Below, piece by piece: positions 6,801 to 34,316 of a DNA stretch of 64,000 nucleotides. The translations under genes were made by a program, and so were the position numbers. The notes below the pieces were generated by a model. It worked only from the letters and a program-made list of their open reading frames with translations, searched no databases and had not been told where the DNA came from. Position 1 is the stretch's first letter. Every line of letters begins with the position of its first letter. Origin of the DNA: Chamaelirium japonicum (taxonomy: Eukaryota > Streptophyta > Magnoliopsida > Liliales > Melanthiaceae); contig OX393550.1 of the NCBI GenBank assembly GCA_947650365.1, forward strand, positions 116,991,515-117,055,514, read 5' to 3'.

Positions 6801-9800
6801 CAGAAGAAAAATATGTATTCGAAAAAGCTAAAAGCAAAAGCTCACTAAGAGTTTATATATAACCAGTTTCTACAAGCATCACCTATGTGTAAAAGACATA
6901 CTCCATTAAGTTTTTTTTTTGAGGAAATTCCTCTCCTAGGGAGAGAGGATGGGGTTAAGCCATACCCCAAGCTATTTATTAATAGAAATAAAGAAGTTTA
7001 GTACAAGGAGTCTATTACAAGTTTAATCATAGCGCTCAAGGTAGCCGAAAGTCCCCCAAACCAGAATTTAACCAGAGCCAATGAAGCGCACCAAGTGGTC
7101 TCCCAAGCCTTCTCCTTATTTCTAAAGATACGAGCATTTATTTCCTTCCAAATTCCCCAGCAAACCCCAATTACTAGCAAGTCCCATGCTGGCCGAAGAT
7201 CTCGGTGGAACATCACTACAATTAAGGAGTGCAAAAAAAAAAAATTTATGCTTTCAAGATTGAGAAGCTAGTTTTCTTTCTACAAACCTTTGAGTTGTCT
7301 CTTCCTCGGTCAAAAAAATCAAAGGGTATTTCGTTGGAAACAATCAAGGAAGGGACAAAGGACTTGGCTTTAGATGTAGGTGAACTTAGCTCTTATGAGT
7401 TTAGAAGCTTTATAATGCTTCAAAAGAACAATAAAAATTATAAACCTATAAGAAGAATAAGGGAAAGGCAAAGATACAATTCTAAATCTAAAGAAAATGG
7501 ACAAAAAGGCTGAAAAGATGAAAAGGAAAGAAAAGGCAAAAAGGCAAGACCCAAATCAGGTGTTATGAGTGCCATGGGTTTGGCATATTTCTTTGATCAT
7601 CCTTATAACAAGAAAGTTGAGGCTAAGGACATGAAAGTGGCTTCTAAGTCTACCTCCTACTTAGTGCTCATATGGACAATTAGCAGGCTGCTGATAGCTA
7701 GCCCAGTGATTCTGACTTGTCAGAGTGACTATGATGAGCACGATATTCAAGCAGCTTATGAGGATCTATTAACTGAGATGATTAAGGTTAAAAACAAAAA
7801 TAAAAGCCTAATGAAAAAGATGAAATACAAGGAATATGATGAAAACTGGAACTAGAGGTAAAAGAGTCTGCAACTCAAGTTATTCAACTGAAAATACTTC
7901 TCTTCTAGACAAAATTAAGTATGCGGATGAAGGTCACCTAGAAAAAAATTGAAAAACAAATCACTTGATAATAAAACTATTAAACTCGAAAACGAACTGA
8001 AAAAATCAAGTGAAAATATCAAATTTTAACTAATGGGCTAGGGTGAATAAGCATCTAACTATAGGAAAATCGGTAGATGATAGACATGTTCTAGGTTTTG
8101 TTATTGATAATATTACTACATTATCTTCTAGGACCATGTTTGTATTGCTAGATGTCCTCACATGTTGTTCCTTGTCCTAATCTATTGATGTGTGTTTTCA
8201 CTGTGGGGACACAAGCTATATCTAAGGGCCTGAAGCTAGGGAGAAAATTCTATAAGAATGATTTTCATAATATGCAAGGTCGTCTACTTAGCCAAATCAG
8301 TCACTTAGTAAAAAACTCTAACACGGATAGATGGACTAAAAAGTAAGAAGAAGTCTTATTCTGAGATTCCTCCCATTGGCTGTGCATGAAAATCATCTCT
8401 GAAGGTTAGAGCCATCTGGTTTATGAAGATGATTTGCATGTTTCCACATTCACTGAGCATACAAGCAACCTTAGGAATGTACTCATGTGCTATGTTGGAT
8501 GATTGATTACTTCATCATAGTCAAAGTCAATTTGATTGGCTGTATTCTTGCCTAATATTATGAGTTAGACAGGATTTCTTCTCAGGTTACCTTTTAAAGT
8601 GTTATCGTTGGACTACTGGAAACTGCCTTTTTTCTGCTTTACTAGAACCAAAATCAAAATTTCAAAATGTTTCTTTTTACGCATTGGGTTTGTTAGGAGA
8701 TGACGGCTAGGGTTTGGAGAGGAATAGAATGCATTCCATTGAGGGACTCAAGCCCAATATATGTACATGTATATCTATACAATCCGACCCGACTGTACAT
8801 TAAACCCGACCCGACTGTATGTACATTAACACTCCCCCTCAAACTCACGGTGGATCATGAACCGAGAGTTTGCCTAGAAAATGTCGGAAGCGAGCAATCG
8901 TCAGGGGCTTCGTCAGAAAATCAGCAGTCTGCTCCGATGAGGAAATGAAAGGCAGGGAGATGGTGTGGTCGATAAACGTCTGGCGAACATAATGACAATC
9001 AACTTCAATATGCTTTGTTCGCTCATGGAAGACCGGGTTGCTAGCAATCTGAATAGCACTCCGGTTGTCACAGAAGAGCGGGGTGGGCCCGGATATCACC
9101 ACTCCCAAGTCGAGCAGAAGACGGCGAAGCCAGACAATTTCGGCGGTGGTGGAAGCCATAGCCCTATATTCGGCTTCGGTGCTGGAGCGAGCAACAGACT
9201 CCTGCTTCTTGCTGCGCCACGAAATCAGTGAGTCACCCAGAAACACACAGTATCCTGTAGTCGATCGACGAGTGGCTGCATCTCCTGCCCAATCTGCATC
9301 GGAGTAGGCACGCAGCACCAACGGAGAGGTGGAGGGAAACAGTAGTGAACGGGTGATGGTGCCCCGGAGGTAGAGGATAATCCGAAGAACAGCTGCAGTG
9401 TACTGACCGTGGAGCCTGAACAAACTGACTGACAATGCCAACAGCATGGGCAATGTCTGGCCGGGTCATGGTGAGATAGACGAGCATCCCAACCAGCCTC
9501 TGGTAGCGGGAGACATCCTGGAGCGGCTCACCGTCAGTAGCGAGAAGCTTCAAATTGAGCTCCATGGGTGTATCTGCAGTGCGCGTGTCAGTAAGAGCAG
9601 CATCAGCAAGGATGTCGGAGATGTACTTCTGCTGGGAGACCAACAGACCACGAGCTGACCGGGCAATCTCAAGGCCCAAAAAGTAGCGAAGAGATCCCAG
9701 ATCTTTCATCTCAAACTAACTCTGGAGGTGCCGCTGGAGAGAGGCGATGGTGGCACTGTCATCCCCAGTGATGATCATATCATCCACATAGAGGAGAAGA

Positions 9801-12800
9801 ACTGCAATGCCCTGACTGGAGGAGCGAGTGAACAAGGCATAGTCAGAGTGACGCTCAACAAAACCGGCGGCCAGAACTGCACTGCGAAATCGCTCAAACC
9901 AAGCACGAGGGGCCTGCTTGAGCACATAGATGGCTCTGCGCAACCGACACACGTGCCCTGGAGGAACAGAAATGCCCGGAGGAGGAGCCATGTAGACTTC
10001 CTCGGAGAGATCACCGTGGAGAAACGCATTGGTGACATCCATCTGATGGAGAGGCCACCCTCGAGCAGCTGCCACAGCTAAGAGGGTGCGCACAGTAGTC
10101 ATCCGAGTAACTGGAGCAAACGTCTCATCGTAGTCAATCCCATACTCCTGGGAGAAGCCGCGAGCAACGAGGCGAGCCTTGTGCCGCTCAATGGATCCGT
10201 CAGGTCGAGTCTTGACCTTGAATATCCACTTGCAGCTAACAGGCACCACCCCGGAGGGACAAGGCACCAACTCCCAGGTCTGGGTCCGCTGAAAAGCCTC
10301 AAGCTCAACTGACATAGCCTGCCGCCACTCTGGATGTAACGCTGCTTCACGGTACGATTGGGGCTCCCGATGGGTGTGTATAGCAGTAAGGAAGGCCTGA
10401 AAGGATGGTGAATAGGAGACACTGGCAGAGTAGCCAGAAGAGTCAGGAGAGCCAGAAGGAAAAGCAGAGTAGCCAAACCTGTCAGGAGAGTAGTCATATC
10501 TGTCAGGAGGGTGATGTTCGCGCGCTGGGTAGCACCGAACAGGAGCAGGATCCACGACCGGGGAGGAGGGGGCAGCAGCATCAGGCGAGGGAGTACCAGT
10601 GTGAACCGACTCTGGAGGGGAAGCTGCAGACCGACGGACATAGACACGAGTAATGGGTGGTGGCGGAGGTGGCGAGGGAGACTGAGGAGGTGGTGGTGGT
10701 GGTGGAGGTGGCGGTGGAGACTGAGGAGGTGGTGGTGGAGTAGGTGTGGATGGGGCAACAGAAACCGGGGGTAGAACAGGGATGTGGAGATGTGAGGAGG
10801 GCGAGGAGGATGACGCAGGAGGCAAGGAAAGATCCCGAGACTCAGGTGCAAAATACGGGACATCCTCAACAAAGGAGACGTGACGGGAGACACGGATCCG
10901 ACGAGCTAAGGGATCATAGCAGCGATACCCCTTGTGCTCACGACTGAGCCCCAAGTGAACACACCTAACAGACCTCGCAGAAAGTTTGGTGCGCTCATGG
11001 GGAGGAAGAAGAACGAAGCACGTGCAGCCAAACGTGCAAAGAAGAGAGTAGTCAGGTGGGCTGGATTGAAGGCGCTCGTGAGGGGTGGCACCGGACAGAG
11101 CAGACGACGGAGTGATATTGATGAGGTGGACAGCCGTCATGACAGCTTCAGCCCAGTAGGAGTGAGGAACAGACGCAGAGAGAAGCAAGGCTCGTGCAGT
11201 CTCAAGGACATGACGATGCTTGCGTTCGGTAACGCCGTTCTGCTCATGGGTGTGGGGACATGACTGCTGGTGAAGAGTGCCGTGAGACTGAAGAATCTTA
11301 CGCATCTCAGAGGAGAGATACTCCTTGGCACAATCAGACCGAAAGGTCTTGATGCGCCGACCAAACTGGGTGTGTATCATAGTGGTGAATCTCCTATAGA
11401 TGTGAGGTACTTCAGATCGATGACGCATAAGATAAACCCAGGTGCACCTAGAATAGTCATCGATAAAGCACACATAATACATGTAACCCGATAGAGATGC
11501 AACAGGAGCAGGACCCCAAATGTCCGAATGGACTAAATCAAATAAAGCATCAGACTGGGAAGCACTAGCAGAAAAAGGAAGAGCTAGATGCTTTGCCAGT
11601 CTACAACCTGTACAAACAGAGAGGGGGGAGAAAGACGCTCGACCCAAAGCGCCCGAACGGAATACGCTTTTGAGTCGATCACTCGATATATGACCTAACT
11701 TTCTGTGCCACAGGTCGGCATCAGAGGTGACAGACATGACAGACGCAACTGAAGACACATGAAGATGATCCAACTGGTAGAGTCCTCCTGCCCTACCGCC
11801 CAGCCCAATCCTCTGACCCGTCCGCGAATCCTGCACAACACAAACAGAAGGGGTGAAGGTGACAGTCAGACCAGAGTCGCAAAGAGAACTGATAGATATC
11901 AGATTAATATTAAGACGGGGGGCATGATGGACATGGGGTAGGGTCAGGCGACCAGAAGGGTCAGAGGTGGTAGTGATGGAGCCACATTGCGGAATAGGGA
12001 CGAGAGTCCCATCCGCAGTGCGAACCTCCTGGTGGGTGGTAGTGGGAGAACAGTCCGTGAGGACAGTGGAGTCAAAGGTAAGGTGACAGGAGGCACCCGA
12101 ATCGAAGATCCATGGAGCAGTAGTACCAGAGGTGGCAGACAAGCCGTGCGCAGTCGCGGAGCCGGTGGAGGCTAGGTGGCGAAGAAGGAGCTCCTCGAGG
12201 CGCTGAAGACGGTCCGGCTCAGGCGGAGAAGGTGCTGTGGTAGCAGTGGGGAGCGTCGAGGTCTCTACAGTAGCCGCTGTACCACCAAAGTGGCGGAAGA
12301 AAGACGAACCACGTCCACGGCCCCGTCCACCTCGACCGCCGCGTCGATCGTCGCGAGAGGTCGAAGCCCAGCGGGGGGCTCTCTCATCCGGACCCCAGCG
12401 GGGGTTGCGTGGAGGACGTGTAGGGCAGTCGCGCTTCATGTGGCCGGGCTCCTTGCAATAGTGACAGAAGACAGCCTCATCGGAGAACCCGGCTACCAGG
12501 ACAGAGTCGGAGCTAGGAGCAAGTGGAGGAGGACGAGCGCCCTGAGTCTGAAGGCGGGTCTCCTCGTCGACCAAGGCGAGTAGAGCATCCTCGAGGCGAG
12601 GGAGCGGCTCACGGTGCAGGAGCTGGGCAGCTATGAGAGCAAAGTCCGGTCGAAGTACTGCCAGGAACTGATGCAGGTGGCCCTCGTCGAGGTAGCGCTG
12701 GAAATCCCGGGAGCGGGGGCAGGCACACCGCTCCGGGATCAGTGAGTCTAGCTCATGCCAGTAGGCACTCATCTGACTGAAGAAGTCCTGAATGGTGCGC

Positions 12801-15800
12801 TCCCCCTGACGGGCAGACTGCGAGTCACAGATGAGCTGATGCCGGCGTGCGCCTCCGCGCGGGAGAAAACGGTCCCGGAGATACTCCCACATCGCGCGCG
12901 CTGTCGGTAGGCGGCCGATTGGAGCAAGGAGCGGACGAGCAACCGAGTCCAGAAGGTACGCCCGGATGGCCTGATCATGGCGGCGCCACGTAAGAGCAGC
13001 AACGGTGAAGGCCGTGGTAGCAGTCGCTGCAGAAGACGCATCACTGCTGGTGACAGAGGAGGAGCCGGAGTAGTCAGTGGAAGGAGGATCCTCGCCGGTG
13101 ATGTGACCCCACCGATCACGACTGGAGAGGGCGGCCTCGACGGTGAGGGACCAGTCAGGCCAGTCGCTGGCCGAGGACAAGTGAAAGGCGACCGCCTTCA
13201 GCGGTGGAGAGATCGCAACGACGGACGGTACGGCTGGAGAAGCCATGGAGGAGGCTCAATAGATGGTGGGAATCGGGAAGGGGTGGGAGGGCCGGTCTGA
13301 TGAAAGAGGGAGGGTCGGGGTGGAGGAAGAGGGAGCGGGGGCTGTAGGTGGGCGGAGGAGGGGGGTCGGGGGTTGGCGGGGGCTGTAGGGGGGGTCGGGG
13401 GTGCTGTAGGTGGGCGGAGGAGGGGGGGCGGGGGGTGTAGGTGGGCGGAGGAGGGGGGGCAGGGGCTGTAGGGGGGGGGGTCGGGAGGGGGTCGGGGTTT
13501 GGCGGGGGTGCTGTAGGTGGGCGGGGGTTGGCAGGGGCTATAGGGGGGGTCGGGAGTGGGTCGGTGGTTGGCTGGGGCTGTAGGGAGGGTCGGGAGGTGG
13601 TCGGAGGAGGGGCCGGTGGAGGAGGGAGGCTGGTGGAGGGTGCAGCCGGCGGGAAGGAGGGACCGGTGGAGGGTGCAGCCGGAGGAGGTGCAGCCGGAGG
13701 AAGGGGGGGGTTTCGGGTGTCTGTCGGGCGGCGGAAGGTGCATCCGGAGGAGGTGCAGCCGGAGGAGGAGGGAGGCCGGAGGAGGTGCAGCCGGAGGACC
13801 GTCGTCGTCGGGAGAACCCTAGAGCTCTGATACCATGTTAGGAGATGACGGCTAGGGTTTGGAGAGGAATAGAATGCATTCCATTGAGGGACTCAAGCCC
13901 AATATATGTACATGTATATCTATACAATCCGACTCGACTGTACAGTAAACCCGACCCGACTGTATGTACATTAACAAGGTTGTTTGCACTTTGTTTTGAG
14001 AGGTACATATTGTTTAGGTTTCGATTAATTTTATTGGTTATAATTTGAAAAATCATAATCGAGGAGCTTAGTAATTTAGTAATGTGTCATTAGACTAAGT
14101 ATAGATTTTTTGGAAACATAGTTTCTTTTACTTGTATATAGTTAGTGAGTGTTCCGATTTGTTCCTACTTAAACTTGCACATGCACCACTGAATGATACG
14201 GAATACGTGTAAAATATCTAAGGTATTGACCAATACACTTGTATGATTATAGTCTAATAAGAGCTAGAAGGACTGGTGGTTAGTTATAGCATACGTGAAA
14301 AGTGGAGCTAACTTACCATCATATCAGATAGCGGCATCTTAATCTTTGTCAGCATGATTTCAGTGTTATTGGCCCGCCTTAGATCAATCTACAAATAAAC
14401 CAACATAAAAATCAACTAATGAGGAGTATAATTAAAATACTGAGATAGTGGATGGGCTTCTCTTTCAATTAAATGAGCTAATGTTTCTGAAGTTTGTGGT
14501 CATGATGTAAAATATAGAATATCAATCCAGTTGTGGTTGTGTGAGGTGTAGTGTAAAAAACCAAACATTTCATTAAATAGGGAAGTTGTTACCAAAGCTA
14601 TGGAAAAGCTTGCACTAACAATAGAGAGTCCTTTATATGAATGGCCAGCGATGAAGGATTCATAAAGCCGATACCAAATAGATGGGATAAGGCTAGATGA
14701 TTATGGCTATGGTTTAATTAAATAAGGAATAATCTGACATAGTAATATGTGAATCTAAATCATCAATTGTAGTGAGAAATCAATAGTTAAAATAAGCAAA
14801 AAAAGTTCACTTCCCATGCACTCTGAATTATAGACTGGCAACATAAGAAGCAGATGATACTATCTAGTATCTGCAGATAAATAATTCATGAGTATCTGCT
14901 AACAATCATTCAAGACTGGAGGCTCAAATGACAGCATATAAGTTAGGTAATGGAAAAAGGAAATCAAGAGGATTATGAAATTTCTTTTCCCCTTCTAACA
15001 AGGGATCTGATATAAGATCTCCATCGAGTGTCAGTATATATCCTGATCAAATCGTGTATACGTAAAGTAACATTTTAATATCAAATTCAACCAACTCAGA
15101 TAAGCTTGCCCTATTGGTCTTCTTTTTCATACTACCAGATGTGCATATTGTCTGTAGACATGCATTTTTCGTAACAATAGAAAAGCATATATGAATGCAT
15201 ATTACACAACATGTAGGGACCACCATTAAAATATGACTACCCATTTTAATAGTGGAACTCTTAGGAATTAAACTTTGATGAAGACCTGATCAGCACCTTC
15301 AGTTCGTATCCGTTTGGGACTTGTTAGACGTTATTTCAGTTTTTGGCCGTTTTTCCCTGTTTTTGGCCTTATTTCAGCATTTAGTTGTATGTCTGTTCTT
15401 GCCCAGTTCATGGGGGATGTCCATGATCTCATCCGAGGGCTTTTCGGATTGAATCCGGGTCTTCTCGGGTGAGTTTCAGCATTATATTAATAAAATTATG
15501 GGTGCGTGTGTTTGTGGGGTACCGACGGACGAGATTAGATCTCAAAACCGACGGTTAGATGGCGAAATAACATAATTTAGATGACGTGGCACTTATGGGC
15601 TTCAATTAGAATGTTATTGGGCTTATCTTAAGCCCAATAAGCCTTCCCATGCATTACCGCACCCCCTCCTCTTCCTTTCCCGTGAACCGAACGCCCCCCC
15701 CCCTCCTTGTCCGCGCGGAAGAAGCCCCGGCCCCACCGTCCGTCCTCTCTCTTCTCTCTCTTCTCTCCCTTGTTTTTCTCCCTTTTCATTGCCTTTTTTA

Positions 15801-18800
15801 ACCCTTTGAATCCCCACCATCAAACCCTAATTGGTCTTTAATCCTAGCCATCGAAACAAAACCCTAACTCTACAAGAAGATGAAGGAAGAAGAAAAAATC
15901 AGATTTTGATAGTTGCTGAAATTCGTGCCTCTTCGTGAGTGCTTCCGGGCGAGACTCGTGTCCCCGATCCTCGCCGATTCCACGACTTCGCCTCGTGAAG
16001 GCTTTGGGCTTCGTTTTCCGAAGGTTCCGGCTTCTCCCGACGTCCGGCCTTGCTCCGTGTGCAGGATCGTCGGCGCATCCTTGCAATCGACCCACGGCGG
16101 GAAACCCCAGGCAGTATCTATCCTTTTCCTTTATTCTCCCATCGCATCCGCTTAGTTTTCATTCGATTTCCATTGCCTCCGCTCCGCATCGCAGCCATAA
16201 CCGGTCTTTTCATTGATAGTTGAAGCCTAATCACGTGCCTAATCATCTGATTTGATATATTTAGTCTGTCGGTTACCTCTGCAAGCATCCATAGCCCTTT
16301 TCTTTTTATAAAATCTGATGCATACCTGCTTGCAATTTTAATATCTTCTGCTGTGATTGAATTTTATATATGCTGAAATCTGTTTTTGTGGTGATAGTGC
16401 ATCTTTATTGTTAAGTCTGAAACCCGTTTCATGTTGATTGCATAGACTTTCTATTACTACGTGAGATAACTGTGTTTGCTGTCCTTTTTAGGCTTATTGC
16501 ACTATAATGATAACTAAACCCTAGTCATTGACCAAAGAAAACACTAAAAGGGTTCAGGATTGTAGTGTGCCTTATTGGTGCCTGCATCAAGTTGGTATCA
16601 GAGCTCGAAAGAACCTGTTCGGGTTTCTTTTGAGTGCTGAATTTCAGCAAACCCTAATCTTTTCTTTGCTGATTTTGCATAGGTCATCGTCTTGCGTGCT
16701 TGATTTGCATTTAGTGTTAGGTTTACGTCTAGCGTTAGGATTGCATCGTGTATCTGACGCCATGTCCTATCGTCGCGTCCGATCCCATCCTTATTCGCTT
16801 GACCCACTAGATACCCACACCTATAAACAATTTGTCAGGCTATATAAATCTCTTGAGCCATGTCCTACCCTTTTCCCGAGATCTTCGATGGAACGTAGAT
16901 ACTCCTCTTCGATTCGAGATCAAGCCCATGACCTGGATCTATCTTCTAAACCTTTTGTTCAATGGGTTTTGCGGAGTCCTTCAGTGCCAACCTTGAAAAT
17001 CAGATATATCGAAACCCAGCTCTTACTTGATGATATTGAGGATGAGTTGGCATGAAGGGAGAAGCAGAACCAGAGGCTTGCCCGATACAGCAGGCCACCA
17101 CCTCCAGCAGAGCCTCCACCTCCTGTGGAGTACCCGGTTCCACCAGTGGCCCCACTTGAGAAGCATCCGCCTCCTGTGGAGCTTCCTCGGCCAATGCCTA
17201 CGGAGGAGCCACCTCTTCCGTCAGCGACTACAGAGGAGTTCCTTCCGCCTTCTCCAGTGCCTACAGCGGTGCCACCTCCTCCTTCAGTGGCTTCAGAGGA
17301 GCTCTTTCCACCTTCAGCAGTGCCTACAGAGGAGCCACTTCCTCCGGTAGTGACTACGGAGAGGCTTCTCCTACCTTTCACAGAGCTTACAGATGAGGCA
17401 CCTCCTTCGGCAGTTCTTCCTACAGCAGAGACACCCGTGGAGCCTCCGACTTCCGCGGAGCTTCCATCACAGCTACAGTCAGAGCCAGTTGGGGAGCTTC
17501 AGACAGCTAAGCCACTTGCGCGCTTTGACTTTGTTGGGACTGACCGACCACCTACAGCTCGTGCGCTTCTGTTTTTGTACTTCAGTACCTTCTGGCCCTC
17601 GCTCGACGCCAGCACTCCCTTCGCGAGAGGCCCAGAGGTTGTTGACTGCCCGAGACATCACTTGTTGGGAATTCATCATCAGATCCAGACACAGCGACGT
17701 TCCCACGGTGGTGGTCTCCCTCCTGCTACCGGCGATGTCTTCCGGCGTAAACTCGAGGACGAGTTTTTCGCAGCGGAAGCGATTGATGAAGACCTGATCA
17801 GCACCTTCAGTTCGTATCCGTTTGGGACTTGTTAGACGTTATTTCAGTTTTTGGCCGTTTTTCCCTGTTTTTGGCCTTATTTCAGCATTTAGTTGTATGT
17901 CTGTTCTTGCCCAGTTCATGGGGGATGTCCATGATCTCATCCGAGGGCTTTTCGGATTGAATCCGGGTCTTCTCGGGTGAGTTTCAGCATTATATTAATA
18001 AAATTATGGGTGCGTGTGTTTGCGGGGTACCGACGGACGAGATTAGATCTCGAAACCGACGGTTAGATGGCGAAATAACATAATTTAGATGACGTGGCAC
18101 TTATGGGCTTCAATTAGAATGTTATTGGGCTTATCTTAAGCCCAATAAGCCTTCCCATGCATTACCGCACCCCCTCCTCTTCCTTTCCCGTGAACCGAAC
18201 GCCCCCCCCCCCCCTCCTTGTCCGCGCGGAAGAAGCCCCGGCCCCACCGTCCGTCCTCTCTCTTCTCTCCCTTGTTTTTCTCCCTTTTCATTGCCTTTTT
18301 TAACCCTTTGAATCCCCACCATCAAACCCTAATTGGTCTTTAATCCTAGCCATCGAAACAAAACCCTAACTCTACAAGAAGATGAAGGAAGAAGAAAAAA
18401 TCAGATTTTGATAGTTGCTGAAATTCGTGCCTCTTCGTGAGTGCTTCCGGGCGAGACTCGTGTCCCCGATCCTCGCCGATTCCACGACTTCGCCTCGTGA
18501 AGGCTTTGGGCTTCGTTTTCCGAAGGTTCCGGCTTCTCCCGACGTCCGGCCTTGCTCCGTGTGCAGGATCGTCGGCGCATCCTTGCAATCGACCCACGGC
18601 GGGAAACCCCAGGCAGTATCTATCCTTTTCCTTTATTCTCCCATCGCATCCGCTTAGTTTTCATTCGATTTCCATTGCCTCCGCTCCGCATCGCAGCCAT
18701 AACCGGTCTTTTCATTGATAGTTGAAGCCTAATCACGTGCCTAATCATCTGATTTGATATATTTAGTCTGTCGGTTACCTCTGCAAGCATCCATAGCCCT

Positions 18801-21800
18801 TTTCTTTTTATAAAATCTGATGCATACCTGCTTGCAATTTTAATATCTTCTGCTGTGATTGAATTTTATATATGCTGATAGTGCATCTTTATTGTTAAGT
18901 CTGAAACCCGTTTCATGTTGATTGCATAGACTTTCTATTACTACGTGAGATAACTGTGTTTGCTGTCCTTTTTAGGCTTATTGCGCTATAATGATAACTA
19001 AACCCTAGTCATTGACCAAAGAAAACCCTAAAAGGGTTCAGGATTGTAGTGTGCCTTATTGGTGCCTGCATCAAACTTTCTATAATCTCTTAAACTAATT
19101 TAGACCTAAGAGCAATAAAAACACGGTGATTCTATGAATAAGGACTTGAATCGATCCATATTACTCTGGCACCAATCTCCCTCGGTTGCAAGATTTCTCG
19201 ATTCCATCCAGAAGATCAAGACAAAGATTTTGATTTTGTATCAATTGATGACGTAGGTCGTTATGAACTTTGGCTTGACAGCATATCGTGTTGATGTAGA
19301 ATATTGCTTTAGTAGCTCTGGATATCCGAACTTGTAGGAGCTGATCAATTATTATGAGATGGTGCTTTGTGGATTTTCAAATTTCAACAATATAGTAAAA
19401 AGGATTTAAGGATCCCAATGCCAATGTAGAATTATGAGTCTATGACTACGACTCATAATGGACTTAGTCACATGATTGTGGTCTTCAAGTTGCTCTTTTC
19501 CTCTGTATGTTCTTTTAAGGCTAATATATCAATGAGCAGCACTCATCCTCTAGTGACAAGTACACATCTGCAACTTTAGAACAAGCTCCTCCTCAGGCTT
19601 CCTCATGAACATCTCCTTAGGTTCACCTTCAACCTTTTCCTCAGGCACATGTACGGCTTCCTCTATGGGATTATCCTTTGGCACCTCCATCGCTTCCTAC
19701 TCTGACTCCGCCTTGGACTCATCTTTGATAATTTCTTAAGCTTCCTGCATAAGCTTTCTTATGAAGCCATCTCTTCGAGCGATTTGTTGAAGAGGGAAGG
19801 TAAACTCTAATCTACCACTGGAGATTCCTTCTAGGGATGATCTAGAAGAAGATTCCTCGTTACCACAAGAGGATTATATCTCTGACACCAAATGATGCAG
19901 AACTAGATTTTATTTGATATAAATATGATGCCAATTATTGAAGGGATTGGTATTTTGTGATACCAATTAATGCCCGAACAAGATTCCAAGGGGATACATC
20001 AACATAATTGTAAATCACAAAAGAGAGAGAGGGTAAAGTAAACAAAGTTAGTTTCAATAAGACTCCAGGAAAAATGAGAGGATGTCCTGGCTATGATACC
20101 AGATGAAGAAGACTAGATCCGATTGTTATAGCTCTTATGCCAATTGATGAAGGGAGTAGTATACTTTGATACCATTCATACCAAAACTAGATCCGAAGGG
20201 ATGAATCAGTATAATAGCAACTACGAAAGACAATAGAGGGAAAAGACTCCAAGAAACTGAGAGTAAAAAATAAATGCCAAAATGTGATGAAATTCAGTGC
20301 TTAATGATTGTTGGTAGTAAAAAAACAAATTCATAAAAACTGAGGTTATGATTGCAGCCCTCTTCTACTCATAGAAAGTTAGAAACTAACTAGGTCGTGA
20401 ACCAACTAGGAACCCGAAATTAAGTTCCGTTTTTGTAATTTCTATAGGTTTTTGTGAATTTCTAGGTCCATGTAAAATTCCAACACATGGAAAATAAATC
20501 AGCACCTTGGATTCTTTTAGGGTGGAGCTATATACAGCCAATGAAATACCAAAGGCAGCTCTAACTTAAACTTGGAAAAATACATAGCATGACCCCGTTT
20601 AAGCCCTGCTCTTGTGCTATGGGCAACCCTCGCCTGCTTTCTCCGTCGTTGGTGATGTGCAGGACGCCACCCGCCTCCTCCGCGATGCACCCACCATCAT
20701 TGGTGTGTCCACCTTCTTCCTCCTTTCTTCCTCTTCCACCTCCTCCTCCCTCCTCCTTTTTCCTCCCCTTCTTCCTCCTCCCCTTCTTCCTTCTTCTCTT
20801 TCCTTCCTCCTCCTGGAAAGCCTGAGACTCAGCCAGGTTGAATGCATCTTTTGTGCATTCGGTCACCCCGATAGAATGCACAAAAGGCACATTCGGCTAT
20901 AGAGGCCGAATGCATCTACAATACATTTGGCCATTGGAGGTCGAATGCATTCCAATGACCGAATGCTCTGTAGATGCATTCGGCCTCGATGGCCAAATGC
21001 ACAGAAGGTGCACTCAGACTGGAATGGTTGAGTGTTGTGATATCTAGGAGGAGGAGGGGAGGGAGGAGGATGAGGAAGAAGAGAAAGAGGAAGAGGAATG
21101 GGAGAAAGAGGCAACGACGGGTTGGATAGGTGGCACGGGCGACAGAGGTAAAAAGGGGGTGTTCAATAGACAGGGGCTGGCTATGAGAAAAAGACATGTT
21201 GCCTTTAGATAGGAGTTGCATTTGGTAATTCTTGGGTTGTATATAGTCTCACCCTTCTTTTATCTAGAAAAGCAAACACACTTCTTATTTTCATCTAAAA
21301 TCCAACCCCTTACTAGGATTTCAAACTGCGTGGTAGTGCAACTAGACTGAATCTAGTGAGGAGAGGAGTCATGTGACTCCTTTATCTACCCTAGAATGAA
21401 AGTATGGCTCAACCCCTTTATCCTAAAATAGAGCCTTACCTAGATTTAATTAATTGTTGGCCTTGTTTTTGTTAGGATTATGCCCTGAAAGCCAATCACC
21501 TTTTTGACATTTTGTAAGCTATAAATGGATTTATGAATAAACATTTGTTATGATGCATGCTATATATTAGTAAAATAGTGGCCATTCCTAGGACTAAAGG
21601 GATGAGTCATGGGTCCATAAGTTACATTGTAGGTGGCATAGTGCATTGAACGAGTCTATATTAGTGTTGTCCATGCACAGATTATCATGTCATTGATATC
21701 TTACAACTCGCATAAATGGTTCATAGGCAGTGATGAAGTAGGGCACTTCATTTGAAAGGTCAGAGAGTGCTCGATCTCTATTTTTCATAGGGTAGTTTGT

Positions 21801-24800
21801 CTCGGTCATCTAAGAAAAAACAAGACTTGTGTGTCAATGTTTCAAATACTTTGAATGGAATTGGAATGAGAATGTACCATCAAATATTATCACCTATGAT
21901 TAAATTCTCACCACCGCTAAAGGCAAAAAACTCTCAACTCTAAGTGAATAGTGAACTCAAGTATCTAGTGTACGATGTTTTGACTTACTAACCTGTGAGA
22001 CCTAACTGGATGATCAAAACCTTGGTATCTTGGGTAGTCGGTATCATGGTTTTAAGAACACGTATTTGCCAGGATGGAGTTCAATATTCTCTCATGAAGG
22101 GAGCATATATTCCCTTGAGTTGATTCAAAGGAATTGATCATTGAAATACGAACCAGGTACTTTTGGTAAAATGAATTATTGAAATGTTTTCTTGCAATCA
22201 TATCCTTTTTAGTAGAACATTGTTTCATTAAAAAAAAATTCTAGCACTCAAGTAAATTAGTTACTTAAGTAACACAAGTACTAAATAGGCATTTTGGTGG
22301 ACAGTGTGAGTCGGTGATTTATAGTGTCATTTACATAGTTCAGGTGGATAAGTTTGGTTGCAGTGATTAGTAGGAAAAGGGCTTGAACATAATATTCGAT
22401 CACTAGGAGTTAAATCACACTATTTAGTGTAGTTAGGTATGATTCGATTGGTATCCCTAATTGTATCATTATATGACCAGAATATTGGAAGCCAATAGTA
22501 GCCAAAATTCTCTCTCTCTCTCTCTCTCTCTCTTCGTGTGTGTGTGACTCGGTTCAGTCTATCCCATAGTCATCTCCATGTGGAGACCCTGTTGACTTCC
22601 GGAGGTAGCCCAAGGGAGGCAGTCACACTGTGTTTCCCACTAGATAACCAAGCGCCAACAATAGAACGTCATTTTGGTCCATTACCCATGGGAATTGATC
22701 TCTCTATTGAGGGTATGACCGGCCCTTGAGGAAACTATTAAGGATAGATATTGATAAGGGAGCAGGTATCATCGGTCTTTGTTGGAGCATATGGCAAGAA
22801 CGCAACATGAGAGTTTTCTCGGGCAAGGAACTCTCCATCGAGATTATCTGATCCAACTTTGTAGCGATGGTTAGCAGTTGGTCGTCAGGTTTCTCTGTTA
22901 AACTCTCAGGGTTGATTAGCCCTTTCCTCTATAGCTTGTAACTCGGTTTTTTATTAATAAATCTTGGGGTATGCTCAACCCCATCCTCTCCTTCTCGGAG
23001 AGGAATTGCTCAAAAAAAAAAAAAAGATAAGGGAGTAGGTATAAAAGGCATGTAGATCTTCATGGAATCAGGCCTATGATATCGGCTTGTTATCTTGAAG
23101 ATAATCAAACTGTTGGCACCGCTTCTCTATACAGAGAGAGCTCGAGCCATATGTTGATTATCTAGGTATGCATAGCTACATGCTCCATATGGAACAAAGA
23201 GAGAAAGGAAAGAGAGGAAGGAGGGTTCTGGTGGAAGGGATCCCACCATCATGCATCTGAAGTCACTCATTGGCCACTTTGGTGCAAGATCAATAGGTCA
23301 TCAAGCCACCATCTTCATCTTCTACTTCAGATTTGTGGAGGTTGTGAAAGCTGAAACGGGGAGGCTTCTTCATCTTCTTCCACATGCCAAGGTATGTTTT
23401 GGACTTCTTGTACATTTACAGTCTATATGCTACCTCTTTCATGGCATGGGAACAACATGGATGACAGTTTGGGGTTTGCATTTGTTAGATACCCTCACAC
23501 CTCAAAACTAATGGGATATGTATGCTTAAATAAACCCAAGTGCAGAATTTAAAGCATTAAAATCAGATTTCAGCATATTATAATCAAATTTCAGCAAAGC
23601 CTATAAACACGATTCATCATTCATTCAAGCCCAAGCATATTTAATTTGACAAAGTGATAAAACTGACATAATAAGATTTAATTTCAGATTCTAATAAACC
23701 AGTCCAGCAATACAGATGATCACAATCTCAAATAAATAAAGCCAATGTCTCAAGAACAAGCAAAGATCTAAGCGAATAAATCCTAATGGATGAGATTCTC
23801 AGAAACCAAGGATTTTGGAAACCCTAATGTAAATTCAGCAATAAGGCCGATTGGGGAAAAGAAAGATATCACATGAAAATTATCGAGGGATGATTTCAAA
23901 CCGTGCTTTGGTCAATGCCGGCTGCTAACAGGAACTCCGTTACTGCAGATGAAGGGGCGGAAGAGGGGGCGTGGTCCAGAAGAAAGGTTGAAGAAACCGA
24001 GACGATGGATCTTTGAAGATGAAGGAACTCCGCGTCGATCTTCCGCGAAGCCGTAGACGAATGCGTGGTGACGAGGTAGAAGCGTGCGGGAGGAAGAAGC
24101 AGACTAGAAGCAAGGAAGATTCTTCGGAAGGGATACACCGAACAAGCGAGCCGCTTCTCCGTTCTAGGGTTTCAATTTCATATCATCCTCCTTTCTCAAT
24201 TAGGGTTTTTAATATTTATAGCGGATGAAACAATCAAAGGAAACACAAAAAAAAAGGAAAGAAAGAGAGAGACGCGCGGGAGGAGAGAGAGAAGACCACG
24301 GAAGAGAGAGAGGGTCGGGTGTGTCCGCGGGAGAGAGAGAGAGGGCCGGTCGGGTAGGGGGTTCGGTTAGGGCTTTGGCTTCCTTCTGAATCTCATCCAT
24401 TGAGATTTAAGTTGATCTAAGATCCTACGGCTAAAAACCTAACACGGAAACGAGTCAGTTCGGCATCTGTGGCTCGAACCAGATGCAAACATGGCTCGCA
24501 CCTACCCAAACCAGAAAATAAAACAGAAATAACTAAAGATCCGTTGGTCGGATCGAAACAACATAAGAACCAAAGTTTTAGATCTTCGAATGATCTTTCC
24601 ACTGGTGCAGACGGATCGACGATCGGCTTCCTGGATCTCCGGAACGGATGAAAATACGCCATCAGCTGTAGCAAATCTGCACGTAGTAGGCTCGTCTGCA
24701 TCAAGTCCCCCAGACTCAAAAGAACTCGACTCCTGTCGAGCAAGGTCCTGGATTCGGTGGAGGCTCCCCTGGAAGTAACTGCAACCGCTGCATCTGCTCG

Positions 24801-27800
24801 AACTGCTCTCCCGGGTCCGGTGGCCAAGTAATCCGCCTCAAGTACGCAGCGACTCCATCGGGCATCCCCGGCCCCTCAACGCCAAGCGAAGACCTGAAAG
24901 CCAAAACCAACATCCTCCGCGGCACGATAAGATCGTCAATATACTCAGATAATTTCATGTGATAATAGGGAAATAGGTTGACATGAAATTCAAATGACGT
25001 ATGAAAAGAAAGGCCGCGGGAGCATAATGTGCGGCGGGTCATCGGCTTGCACAAGAAGCAATGGTTTATTTGAAAGGCCATGGGGTGCGGGTGCAATATG
25101 TGTTGCTCAAATTGGCCTGCGCACGGTGCAAAACAAGGGGATTCTAAACCAAGAAGATATGTCATGTCATCATTGTCTGGATGCAGTGAATCAAATAAGA
25201 AATTCAAGAACTCATCATGCCACTTGTTATGACTTCGAAAAATTAAAGATGATGGGTTGTCTGAAATCTGAAAGCATGAGTCATAAGTACCCTGCCTTGA
25301 AAAGTGATCAAACGTGCCAAAATCTTCTTTAATGTTAAACTCAACACTTGGATGATATGGATGCACATATGATTGGTCGATGAATGTATAGATGTCAGGC
25401 AAATGATGAATGCGAGTGTCATGGATGCCTACAGACTCTAAATGCGATGTGCATGCAATGGAATGCAGAATGTTATCTAATCCCTTCTCAATTGGTAGCG
25501 AATCAGATGAACACCCAACTAAATTATTTGCAAATGATGGTATGGGATGGCTCTGACTCAGAAGACTTTGAGGTGCGTGGGAAAGGTGTCTCCTAAAACA
25601 TGTGGGCCATAGGGTGACATTGATGCCGTCCTTAAGGAAGGTATAGGTGTTGGCCCTTCCGTGATGTTGTACATCTTGGTCGAACTGCCATGGACGCCCA
25701 AGGATAACATCAGCCACTTCTAAAGGAAGGACATCACATCAAATCTCGTCGTGATATTGCAGCCCAATTGATAACTTTGCCAAACAACAATGCGTCACCA
25801 ACTTGCTCGTGGTGTTATCCAGCCAAGATGTTTTGTATGGGTGAGCCAAAGGTTGGACTTTCCACTTCTTGCTCCTGACTATCGCTTCATTGATCAGATT
25901 GGTGGTGCAACCTCCATCGATCAAGACACAAAGGTCTATCCCGTTGACAGTGCAGACTGTTCGGAACAGTTCGAACCTCTGATTCTTGCAGTGTGGCTTT
26001 GGGGGTCCTCCACAGAGCTCGTGGGGAAGTAACGCTTTAGGTGCCTGGGGTGATGGCGACTGGTGAATAACCAATAGTGGCGCAGTCACATCATCTCCCT
26101 CCAAGACTAACTCATTGAAGTTTTCGCCTTCAGACTCATGACCATCCTCGTCATTATCCGCAAGATTTGTCTGTGGATGGAATTGACGTCGAGGACAATC
26201 GGCTGACTTGTGACCCGGCTGGTTGCATTTGAAGCACTTTATCTGGCTCGGGTTGGGTCCTAAAACTCCTTTACCCTTCTCAGTGGTTGCAGGAACCGTG
26301 CCAGCTACAGGTAAAGGTCCAGGGAGTGGTCTACTAACAGATCCGGATGGTGCCCTAGTGTTGTTATATCGCCGGGACGCAGATCGGGAGTGGTGAGACT
26401 CGACTTTCTTAGCCCGACGGTGTGCATCACTGACCTGATACAAGTCGTGAAGGGACACCACCTCTTGAATTGAAGGCTTAAGACCATTGACATACCTAGT
26501 GACGCTCTGCTCTTCGTCTTCATGCAGATCATTGCGAGCTTGGAGCTTGTAGAATTCATTGGTGTAATCATCTACCGATTTGTGCTCTTGTCGCAGGTTT
26601 TGAAATTTCTGGAACATACATTGCTTGAAATCAGAAGGGAGGAACTTCTGTTGCATCTGTCCTCTCATGTGTGTCCAAGTGGAAATTTTCTCTTTTCCTT
26701 TTCTACCCCTAGTGGTTTGCAACTGTTTCCACCAAATCAGTGCATGACCTTTCAATTTAAGACTAACAAACTTGACTTGTTTGTCACGGGGGATTTCTTT
26801 CCACTCAAAGTATTGGTCGATTCTCTCGGCCCATTCTAGGAATTCTTCGGGATCCATCCTACCCTCGAACTCAGGAATTTCTATTTTGATGCCCTGATCC
26901 CAGCCCCAATGGGATTTCGCTTTCCTATGACTTTGCCTACTTCGCCTCTCAGATCCATCAGAGGAACTGACGCTGTCACCTCCTGACTCTAGATCTAACT
27001 CACTACGCCCTGGTGACGCTCTAGTCCTGTGTTCTCGACGGGGTTGAGGTGGATTTTGGGAATTGGTGAAGGCCAAGGTCAAGGTTTCAATCTGGGTCTG
27101 GATCCTATCCATGTGCTCTTGTTGCCTCATGAAGGCATCTTGCCAAGTACGGGGTGGAGAAGATCCAACCATTTGAGAGTCTCTAGAAGATGCTATTGAT
27201 TCACTACAGAGAGAAAGGTGATCCTAAGATGGATGCGCTCACGCGATGCGTGTTTCCTAATTAATGCAAGATACAAGCTAAATGAAAGAAGGAAAAATAA
27301 AAAAAAATTTCAGCAAGCACGCGAGGATGCAAGACGTTGACGACTAGTGCGTAAGGACGCGACGACTAGTGCGCTCTGATACCAACTTGATGGGATACGT
27401 ATGCTTAAATAAACCCAAGTGCAGAATTTAAAGCATTAAAATCAGATTTCAGCATATTATAATCAAATTTCAGCAAAGCCTATAAACACGATTCATCATT
27501 CATTCAAGCCCAAGCATCTGTGGCTCAAACCAGATGCGAACATGGCTCGCACCTACCCAAACCAGAAAATAAAACAGAAATAACTAAAGATCCGTTGGTC
27601 GGATCGAAATAACATAAGAACCAAAGTTTTAGATTTTCGAATGATCTTTCCACTAGTGCAGACGGATCGACGATCGACTTCCTGGATCTCCGGAACGGAT
27701 GAAAATACGCCATCAGCTGTAGCAAATCTGCACGTAGTAGGCTCGTCTGCATCAAAAACCCTGGTTGTAAGAGAAGGTCCACAGCCACAGGGAGTATATT

Positions 27801-30800
27801 AAGCATGTGGTGCGTACCTCCCTCACTAATGTGGGACTATTTGTCAACACTTCCCCTTACGCGGAGCACGCGTGGCAAGGATCCTCCCACGCGGAGCACG
27901 TGTGGCAAGGCACGATCGGGGGGGAGCACCCGGAGCGGGAGCAGGAACAGGAAACGGGCCAGCTTTGATACCATGTTAGATACCCTCATGCTCCAAAACC
28001 CGGGTTTTGGGGCATGAGGGTATCTAGTCAACACTCCCCCTCACGTGAAGCATGCGTAGCAAGGATCCTCCCACGCGGAGCAGCGTGGCAAGGCACGATC
28101 GGTGGGGAGCACCCAGAGCGGGAGCAGGAGCAGGAGACGGGCCAGTCTGATACCATGTTAGATACCCTCACACCTCAAAACCCGGGTTGTAAGGGGAGGT
28201 CCACATGTGGGTATATTAAGCGGGTGATGGGTGCCTTCCTTACCGATGTGGGACTATCCGTTAACACTCCCCCTCACGCGGAGCACGCGTGGTAAGGTTC
28301 CTCCCACGTGGAGCACGCGTGGCAAGGCACGATCGGTGGGGAGCACCCGGAGCTGGAGCAGGAGCAGGAGACGGGCCAGCTTTGATACCATGTTAGATAC
28401 CCTCACACCTCAAAACCCGGGTTGTAAGGGGAGGTCCACAGCTGGTATATTAAGTGAGTGATGGGTGTCTCCCTCATCGATGTGGGACTATCCGTTAACA
28501 CTCCCCCTCATGCGAAGCACACATGGCAAGGCACGATTGGTGGGGAGCACCCGGAGCGGGAGCAGGAGTAGGAGACGGGCCAGCTCTGATACCATGTTAG
28601 ATACCCTCACACCTCAAAACCCGGGTTGTAAGAGGAGGTTCACAGGGAGTATATTAAGCAGGTGGTGGGTGCCTCCCTCACCGATGTGGGACTATTCGTA
28701 ACAACATTTTCTATTATCTACGTCCGCTGCGATCCAGTCTCAGATTGGCATCAGAAGAGGCTAGCATCTTCAGATTGATAGAAGATATGGGTTAGATCCA
28801 AAAAGATGGATCAGATCTATAGACTCAATCGATAGATGGTACCAGGCTAAATTGTGGTTCATGTGCCTAGTGTTGGATACGGATTAATCTTCAGTATAAG
28901 TTTTGTAACAAAAAGATCCTGGAAACTTTTGCAAAGTTTTCCCAAAATTTAAATAATGTTCCAACTAGCTTAAAAATCTAAAATAAAATTTAAAAATAAG
29001 TCAAAAGCCCAGAATATAAAAAATAAACAGTTTAAGACTAATGACTTAATCAACCTTTATTTGCTCATGCATCATACATCCTGTAATAAACTTGCGGTCT
29101 TTCTTCAACTTAGATTCTAGAAATTTGGGATAATAAACTTGATGAAAATAGAGGCATTCTTTATACATGCAGTAATCTACCTGATTTATCTTGGTGGCCT
29201 TACAATTCTTGATCTTGTATTTTGTGCTTGCCCTATGACAATATTTACCTAAGATATTTTTCACACCTAAAGAGAACTGTATAATTTCAGTAAATGATAA
29301 TCAGCAGTCATGATTAAATTTAACAAGCTTCTTTTGATCAAATCATCAAACAATGAAGAATGGAAGACACTCTCCCGATGCATTCTTATATCTCTTGTAA
29401 ATTCCCAAATAGTGATTCACAGTCGTAATTTTCCAATGTAGGGCCACTTTTATCTGCTTTATTTTGCTTATTCTGATTTGAAACTGGTAATCTAAGAGCA
29501 TAAACTGAAAAAACAATATAAAATTGCATAAAAGATATTTACACATAAATAATGAGCAAGTAGACAAGCAGCACCGAATTAGTTCACAAATATGAATTCA
29601 ACTACTGCTACTTGAGCACAGAAATAAGAGAAGTAAGTAAATAACAATGCAGCAACATGGAAATGGTACTTCCACAGTGAGGTCCTGTGGAATTGACAAG
29701 TTACCAAATGAACTTTATCTGATTTAGTGATAGATTTGTTGTGCCCATCAGCTTTAGATTTATTGTCCTTTTGAACCACTGCAGAGAAGAGACTCTCAAG
29801 TTCTGACACATCAAATTCTGAAGTGCTGCATTAAAAACCTTTACTCATTAAGAATGAAGACCGTACTGGAAACCAGAAATGCATCTCACAAGATATGAAA
29901 CATAATCAGCAACAAAGAAATCAGGAAGGTCAAGAAAAAGGTGACCATTTAAGAATTTAATTATCTGCTATAAAACAAACAAAATGAATTTACTATGTAA
30001 AGCAAAGTTTGAATACGATTAGTAAATACCAATGAGTATCAGCATATTTCTGTAAGTCTGCCCATAAGCTTCCTTGCACTGCTCTTGTTACTTTCACCCA
30101 ATGCAATGGTTTTAATGATGATTTTCGAGGAGCTGTAGGACGTGTAAGCCCATTCCCTCTACCCCCAAGTACGCAGTTAGCTAAGCCTCTAGTTCCAGCC
30201 TGAGAACTAGCTAAACCTGCTGGCGGAGGCGGAGGAGCACCTGGAGACCTAGAAAGTGCTGGAGGAACACACAATCCAGCAGGCGGTGGAGGAGGTGGAC
30301 CTCCTCGATTCCTTCCTGGGGGAGGTGGTGGAGGTGGAGTGCCTCTGCATGCTCCAGGAAGAGGAGGTGGAGGTGGGGCTCCTCCGCGTGCACTAGGAGA
30401 CGGTGGTGGAGGTGGAACTCCATGTACTCCAAGGGGAGGTGGTGGAGGTGGAGGTCCTCCATGCCCACCAGGAATGAGTGGTGGAGGTGGCAGTCCACCA
30501 TACCCGCTAGGGAGGTAGGGTGGGGGTGGCGGTGGTATTCCTCCATGCCCACTCCGTAGTAGTGGAATTCCTCCACTTGCTCTAGGGGGAGGTGATGGTG
30601 GTGGTGGAACTTCTCTACAAAATCCAGTGGAACGGGGTGAAAGCGGAGCTCCTCCATGCATATAAGGCAGGGGAAGAGGGGTTGGAGTAACAACCTCAGG
30701 AACCTTTAATGTATTTGATGATGGCAAGGGAGTTTGAAGGGCTAGGGGAGGTGTTGTCAAGGAGCCTGTAAAAGAGAATCTTGATGAAATCATTGGAGGT

Positions 30801-33800: not shown

Positions 33801-34316
33801 TGCAAGGATAAAAGCAAGCACCGGCCATCCTCCTCTCTCACAATGCATTAGCAAGACGTTTTGTTTCCCTTCTACTGATAGCCAGCTTTCGTACGATTTC
33901 AAGAAATGGTGGAGCATCGCCAAAGGAAGTAATGGACAGCCTTCGTACTGCCGAGGGCAGTCCATGACCTTCATATGATGCTGAGATAAAATATCCGAAG
34001 TTTGGCTCTTTTCACCACCTCTGATGTTGAATACCAGGAATGAAGAATCAGGAAAATAATCCTCCAGCTGGGTCATAATACTGCCTATGTAGTCCCTGTA
34101 CTCATCTTCTTCCATAACTACTGAAGAAAAGCAACAGTCGAACACTGCAAGCACACCAATCAATTGGCAAAAATTTAAAAATAAAAAACGGTACAAAGGA
34201 CAGGATCCTGAAATAAGGTAGAACAGAACCATAGAAACATGTCTCTTAGCATATTAGTACGGATAATTTATTAGGAAAAGAACTCCAACCACTCTCAGAG
34301 CAGCCAAAGTAAAGAA

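What the first reader, a model, noticed from the sequence alone, without database searches (positions are those of the whole stretch)
23483..28703. Head-to-tail TRIM array with five LTRs sharing four internal domains
Five LTR copies alternate with four 94-124-bp internal segments, each with primer site and polypurine tract at the expected edges, and a single target duplication (GCATT/ACATT) surrounds the whole. Single TRIMs have two LTRs; an array this long implies repeated unequal recombination between LTRs or concatemer formation before insertion. Units differ in internal repeat number, so it is not an assembly collapse.
Basis: partly seen in the sequence, partly recalled or inferred. Interest (0 to 1): 0.72.

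Follow-up and report, generated by a model that had tools for sequence, protein, structure and literature searches.

The report
Five-LTR mini-retrotransposon array in intron
A tiny non-coding plant retrotransposon sits in a gene's intron as a chain of five end-repeats instead of two; such chains are already known, but this one carries marks suggesting it was put together while being copied, before it entered the chromosome.

Summary
The array is real: five LTRs and four internal domains (L5I4) on the minus strand of a 1.52-Gb genome, with one imperfect target duplication (GCATT/ACATT). Three corrections. The leftmost LTR is split by a 4.25-kb gag-bearing Ty3-type element with its own duplication (AAAAC), so the TRIM itself is about 970 bp. 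LTR4 is a 60-bp palindrome. The array lies in a 15.3-kb intron of a formin-like gene.

Tandemly arrayed TRIMs, including L5I4 with a single duplication, are published (PMC4717578), and arrays are common in this genome (18 of 74 sampled LTR groups have three or more LTR hits). The kind is known; the origin was open.

Here the outer LTR pair and the inner pair carry different haplotypes at 5 of 5 informative sites, and the inner one is the family's commonest. That contradicts simple unequal crossing-over between the two LTRs of one insertion. Sibling loci show abutting LTRs, inverted dimers inside one duplication, recurrent palindromic mini-LTRs, and exchanges with a copia family at the primer-binding site. 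Best explanation: assembly during reverse transcription by template switching and fold-back, then one integration. Ectopic recombination after insertion is not excluded.

The parts
28595..28703 (-). LTR1 (5' terminal LTR), 109 bp
28501..28594 (-). internal domain I1, 94 bp, PBS TGGTATCAGAGC, PPT GAGGGGGAG
28391..28500 (-). LTR2 (inner), common family haplotype GTCCC at the five diagnostic sites
28267..28390 (-). internal domain I2, 124 bp (30 bp longer than I1)
28156..28266 (-). LTR3 (inner), haplotype GTCCC, 0.9% from an LTR at locus L019
28034..28155 (-). internal domain I3, 122 bp
27974..28033 (-). LTR4: 60-bp palindromic mini-LTR (inverted copy of the LTR 3' part centred on CCCGGG)
27850..27973 (-). 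internal domain I4, 124 bp
27755..27849 (-). LTR5 (3' terminal LTR), first piece
23483..23508 (-). LTR5, second piece beyond the nested insertion
23509..27754 (-). nested Ty3-type element (Retrotrans_gag, Ty3_capsid, zinc knuckle in ORF 25739-27172), LTRs about 23509-24703 and 27388-27754 (the latter lacking the middle of the former), duplication AAAAC
23478..23482 (.). target duplication, left copy GCATT
28704..28708 (.). target duplication, right copy ACATT
8691..13976 (-). copia element of the proposed helper family: LTRs 8691-8831 and 13836-13976, PBS 13824-13835, 1176-aa gag-IN-RT ORF 9716-13246
14389..29704 (-). intron of a formin-like gene that contains the array (exon 29825-29705 above, exon 14388-14317 below)
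   Evidence: exon borders read by eye

Best explanation
It is a tandemly arrayed TRIM, L5I4. The array was most likely assembled during reverse transcription, inside a particle supplied by a co-resident Ty1/copia family, and integrated once. The reverse transcriptase switched templates between co-packaged TRIM RNAs at the shared LTR and primer-site sequences. It also folded back at the self-complementary AACCCGGGTT inside the LTR, which made the palindromic LTR4. The two terminal LTRs were copied from common template parts, as in any LTR element, so they share a haplotype; the inner LTRs kept the haplotypes of their own templates. Integration made one 5-bp duplication. A Ty3-type element later inserted into LTR5. 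Shown: anatomy, haplotype split, sibling structures. Inferred: the helper, the template switching and fold-back, and their order.
For: Single flanking duplication. Four-LTR site test (LTR1, LTR2, LTR3 and the right-hand piece of LTR5): 5 of 5 two-two informative columns give outer|inner; outer haplotype ACTTT in 0 of 174 other sampled LTRs, inner haplotype GTCCC in 74 of 174. In 41 two-LTR elements with a duplication (at most 1 mismatch), the two LTRs differ at these five sites by 0 (26), 1 (13), 2 (1) or 4 (1). Across 15 arrays, states rare in 137 reference LTRs (at most 5%) and shared by some but not all LTRs of an array are confined to the outer pair in 6 of 9 cases (2 of the 6 in the window itself), one outer plus inner in 2, inner only in 1; at 10% 8 of 13, at 20% 10 of 17. 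LTR4 is palindromic (z -8.7); all 40 places scored (of 112 candidates, the window among them) match its palindrome on both strands (counted by hand). Palindromic LTRs form both ends of inverted dimers with perfect duplications at L092 (AACCA) and L099 (ATTAC). LTRs abut with no spacer at 6 places genome-wide (38-mer, up to 3 mismatches), with a perfect outer duplication at L016 and L047. TRIM and copia parts are joined exactly at the primer site in L053, L058, L075, L097, L106 and L079. Arrays are already common in the first sample, whose LTRs are mostly 95-100% identical to one young-looking LTR (6 of 25; identities), against 12 of 49 in the other two samples.
Against: An AU test on 110 columns does not reject one clade for the four window LTRs (p 0.41). 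The inner-excess pattern is not uniform: L080, L085 and L088 show no excess of inner-unique changes, L086 has 9 inner against 10 and 2, L016 and L030 show almost no variation, L017 and L047 none in their LTRs. Terminal LTR5 has 7 single changes against 1 (LTR1), 4 (LTR2) and 2 (LTR3), which could mean unequal ages, although equal rates are not rejected (chi-square about 6.0, 3 d.f., by hand). Whether differences between internal domains are standing or new is inconclusive. The target duplication has one mismatch. The 15 arrays were not a random sample.
Confidence: 0.62

Rival explanations
1. One ordinary two-LTR TRIM inserted, and repeated unequal crossing-over between its LTRs on sister or homologous chromatids built the array.
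For: One duplication surrounds the whole array. Recombination is proposed in the literature for Wukong and as one option for tandem LTR elements (PMC4528315; PMC11899658). A solo LTR with a duplication, the reciprocal product, exists (L063).
Against: Inner LTRs should then be mosaics of LTR1 and LTR5; instead LTR2 and LTR3 differ from both at five sites and carry the family's commonest haplotype. It cannot make LTR|LTR abutments, inverted dimers or copia joins. Single-LTR groups are few (8 of 74): L053, L059, L075 and L081 are copia chimeras, L079 is a TRIM LTR on a copia body and L082 is joined to another element, one is a fragment at L087, and only L063 is a solo LTR with a duplication.
Confidence: 0.1
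2. An older two-LTR TRIM was enlarged later by homologous recombination or gene conversion with a younger TRIM (cDNA or another locus), as is known for Ty1 cDNA in yeast (recalled).
For: The inner LTR3 is 0.9% from an LTR at L019, while LTR5 is 11.4% or more from every LTR compared over more than 80 columns.
Against: Outer LTR1 has the fewest single changes (1), fewer than LTR2 (4) or LTR3 (2), so an old shell around a young core is not clear. It does not by itself make the palindromic LTR4.
Confidence: 0.22
3. Several TRIMs inserted separately side by side.
For: This does happen: L036 looks like two TRIMs 97 bp apart, its middle spacer being unlike an internal domain.
Against: In the window LTRs are shared between units, with internal domains, not target duplications, between them.
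Confidence: 0.02
4. Assembly artefact.
For: Tandem repeats are hard to assemble.
Against: The full-length LTRs of the units differ by 7 to 22% and the internals in length; other arrays occur; PCR-checked ones exist in maize (PMC4717578).
Confidence: 0.02

Closest known systems
Tandemly arrayed TRIMs (TA-TRIM), maize Zma-SMART L5I4 (PMC4717578; passages seen)
   Same: Five LTRs, four internal domains, one target duplication; an inverted TA-TRIM is also figured there.
   Different: No palindromic mini-LTR and no primer-site chimera with a copia element is mentioned in the passages seen; here the outer and inner LTR haplotypes differ.
Wukong TRIM of maize (PMC4528315; abstract and two sections read)
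   Same: Multi-LTR elements with up to seven LTRs; nested insertions in some copies.
   Different: There recombination between elements is proposed; here the evidence points to assembly before integration.
Cassandra TRIM arrays (PMC7215508; abstract and discussion read)
   Same: Alternating LTRs and internal domains in long arrays; template switching is one of two mechanisms proposed.
   Different: Cassandra LTRs carry 5S RNA sequence; no Rfam family reached its gathering score in the window.
Tandem LTR retrotransposons of rice (PMC11899658; abstract and two sections read)
   Same: Tandem units share inner LTRs inside one duplication.
   Different: Not TRIMs; the origin was left open there.
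SMART/FRetro129 of grasses (PMC3281118; passages seen)
   Same: Miniature LTR element with a putative larger partner that shares PBS and PPT.
   Different: The partner there shares the internal region; here the shared parts seen are LTR ends, PBS and PPT, plus chimeric joins. Sequence homology was not tested.

Membership tests
TRIM | Short element without coding capacity, LTRs about 100-250 bp, internal domain about 100-300 bp | tested here: met
   LTRs 109-111 bp, internals 94-124 bp (one internal slightly under 100); two-LTR relatives of about 314 bp with perfect duplications, e.g. L002. Size range from PMC4528315. That the internals lack coding capacity follows from their length.
TRIM | PBS and PPT at the internal edges | tested here: met
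   that TGGTATCAGAGC pairs with initiator tRNA-Met is recalled
TRIM | Target duplication of 4-6 bp | tested here: met
   GCATT/ACATT, one mismatch, at this site; exact 5-bp duplications at many relatives
TA-TRIM | Three or more LTRs with two or more internal regions in one insertion | tested here: met
   L5I4 with one flanking duplication; description in PMC4717578
Cassandra | 5S RNA sequence in the LTR | tested here: not met
   no Rfam match at gathering score in the window
SMART, Wukong, Katydid | Sequence homology to the named family | not tested

The most novel reading that the evidence does not exclude
This TRIM family makes palindromic mini-LTRs by fold-back of strong-stop cDNA at AACCCGGGTT. 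These 56-bp hairpins can act as true integrating ends, and TRIM and copia genomes trade halves at the primer-binding site in the same particle. Direct, inverted and chimeric arrays would then all come from one error-prone reverse transcription, and copia elements can even take over a TRIM LTR as their 5' LTR (L079).
Probability: 0.35. Interest if true: 0.62.

Novelty: new member of a known kind. Interest (0 to 1): 0.42.

Why it matters
Published work leaves open whether LTR arrays form by recombination after insertion or by insertion of ready-made concatemers (PMC11899658; PMC7215508). This family offers a test. The outer and inner LTRs of one array can be compared site by site, and sibling copies carry joints (LTR|LTR, inverted palindromic, TRIM-copia at the primer site) that crossing-over between direct repeats cannot make. 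The joints also point to the copia family that probably mobilises the TRIM; PMC4717578 found related larger elements for only 11 of 289 TRIM subfamilies.

Tried and rejected
Tree of 174 LTRs (4 rows dropped for length; the palindromic LTR4 left out): too few columns, 94 of 130 inner branches open; the clade test was not decisive. Differences between internal domains as standing or private variants: mixed, inconclusive. L036 was first counted as a four-LTR group and then set aside, because its middle spacer is unlike an internal domain. L027, L037, L078, L087 and L090 were left out of the array tests (inverted, truncated or without a clear duplication); L094 and L098 went in with incomplete first LTRs (65 and 80 bp), the window with three full LTRs and the right-hand piece of LTR5. 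5S-type LTR (Cassandra): no Rfam match. Literature on palindromic LTRs or snap-back strong-stop in TRIMs: two searches listed no paper on it; only the listings were seen, and papers outside the library were not searched. One search for Ty1 cDNA recombination was seen as a listing only. A paper search for the LTR motif gave a list of unrelated papers. The host species was not identified; one search for palm TRIM papers was a guess and was dropped.
Full report
What is there. The window lies at G000:C2:116991515-117055514, in a genome of 1.52 Gb in 3253 contigs. On the minus strand, 28703 down to 23483, stand five LTRs and four internal domains. LTRs are 109, 110, 111, 60 and about 116 bp; internals are 94, 124, 122 and 124 bp. 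Each internal begins with a primer-site sequence (TGGTATCAGAGC or a near copy) and ends in a purine tract. The flanks read GCATT and ACATT. The 26-bp LTR end occurs four times in the window at up to 3 mismatches, and never in 100 shuffles.

Corrections to the finding. The long span comes from a nested element, 23509-27754, inside LTR5. It is flanked by AAAAC on both sides, its terminal repeats align at 97.5% (242 bp) and 99.2% (128 bp), and one of its two ORFs matches Ty3-type gag with a zinc knuckle; the other matched no family. LTR4 is a palindrome of 60 bp, z -8.7 against shuffles. The array lies in an intron: exons of a formin-like gene were read by eye on the minus strand at 29825-29705 and 14388-14317 (IDLRRANNTEIML), with PTEN_C2 matches further upstream. 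The name formin rests on recall of the FH2 sequence, not on a family match.

Family and frequency. A half-LTR 56-mer has 919 matches at up to 3 mismatches, and the LTR-primer-site 29-mer has 2454 at up to 2. Of 74 LTR groups at places found by three searches, duplicates removed by identical sequence, 8 had one LTR hit, 48 two, 11 three, 3 four and 4 five (groups are LTR hits on one strand no more than 170 bp apart, and the window's own array is one of the five-hit groups). These searches started from this array, so the sample is not random; among 100 exact primer-site places listed, five neighbouring pairs lie within 300 bp. Of the 18 groups with three or more, 11 besides the window have a flanking duplication with at most one mismatch. 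One, L036, looks like two separate TRIMs; the other five (L027, L037, L078, L087, L090) are inverted, truncated or unclear.

How the array arose. Under unequal crossing-over between the two LTRs of one insertion, inner LTRs must be mosaics of the outer ones. Over columns present in LTR1, LTR2, LTR3 and the right-hand piece of LTR5, five are informative for a two-two split; all five group LTR1 with LTR5 and LTR2 with LTR3 (chance 1 in 243 if the three splits were equally likely). The outer haplotype was not seen in the 174 other LTRs; the inner one was seen in 74. In 41 ordinary two-LTR elements the two LTRs differ at these sites by at most one in 39. LTR3 is 0.9% from an LTR at L019, and LTR2 4.5% from LTRs at L016. 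So the inner LTRs look like separate family members. Reverse transcription makes terminal LTRs alike whatever lies between them (established knowledge), which fits a ready-made mixed array. Across 15 arrays the same signature appears: rare states shared by the outer pair only in 6 of 9 cases, from five arrays, two of the six in the window itself; at looser cut-offs 8 of 13 and 10 of 17. It is not uniform (no inner excess in L080, L085, L088), and a clade test does not reject local origin (p 0.41).

Sibling structures that crossing-over cannot make. LTRs abut with no spacer at six places. Five were read: L005/L016, L044-L047, L097, L098, L106. L016 and L047 are flanked by perfect duplications, GTACA and TACAC. 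The palindrome of LTR4 recurs: all 40 scored places, of 112 candidates and with the window among them, match on both strands. At L092 and L099 palindromic mini-LTRs form both ends of an inverted dimer with perfect duplications AACCA and ATTAC; at L093, L100, L102, L103 and L104 a palindrome sits between divergent primer sites. L100 and L102 are nearly identical and share their left flank, so they may be one locus assembled twice or a duplicated segment. L003 is a long inverted array.

Helper. A copia family with 2002 LTR-primer-site junctions (46-mer, up to 3 mismatches) shares the LTR ends (TGTTAA...CTAACA) and the primer site with the TRIM, and the purine tract as read at L021. Copia LTR ends are joined to TRIM internals at the primer site in L025, L053, L058 (the same locus as L081), L059, L075, L097 and L106, and a TRIM LTR is joined to what looks like the copia internal region in L079. 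At L097 the copia piece matches reverse transcriptase (RVT_2, E 2.8e-8). L082 has another element's end joined to a TRIM internal. The window itself carries a copia element of this family at 8691-13976. None of the three chimeras with a copia LTR at one end and a TRIM LTR at the other that were checked has a clear duplication: L053 has none, L058/L081 lies in a TA repeat, and in L059 the TRIM LTR runs on into a primer site.

Judgement. The array is a tandemly arrayed TRIM as described in PMC4717578 (passages), so the kind is known. Its LTR haplotypes and its palindromic LTR4, together with the sibling structures, favour assembly during reverse transcription and one integration. The order of template switches, the fold-back and the role of the copia family are inferred. 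Later ectopic recombination with a younger TRIM is the main rival.

Noticed in passing
window 42902-63884: Blocks of satellite DNA with a period near 154 bp, in several arrays of up to about 32 copies; C-rich on the plus strand from about 46 kb.
   Followed up: no
window 2954-4914 and 8691-13976: Two copia copies of the proposed helper family (LTRs about 140 bp; proline-rich repeats follow the primer site in the first); the larger lies in the next intron of the formin-like gene.
   Followed up: partly
L079: A TRIM LTR joined at the primer site to what looks like the copia internal region.
   Followed up: partly
L099 111-732: Inverted TRIM dimer with 56-bp palindromic ends, duplication ATTAC, and an inverted piece of copia LTR end in the centre.
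   Followed up: partly
L003 1064-2407: Inverted multi-LTR array of nearly identical units; GATGT occurs at both edges.
   Followed up: partly
window 29993-34232: Formin-like gene on the minus strand with a PTEN-type C2 domain and a long proline-rich region; further FH2-like exons near 14.4, 6.7, 5.9 and 5.5 kb.
   Followed up: partly
window 16593-16604: A further TGGTATCAGAGC site that follows a different LTR-like end (CATCAAGT), so another element with the same primer site may lie there.
   Followed up: no
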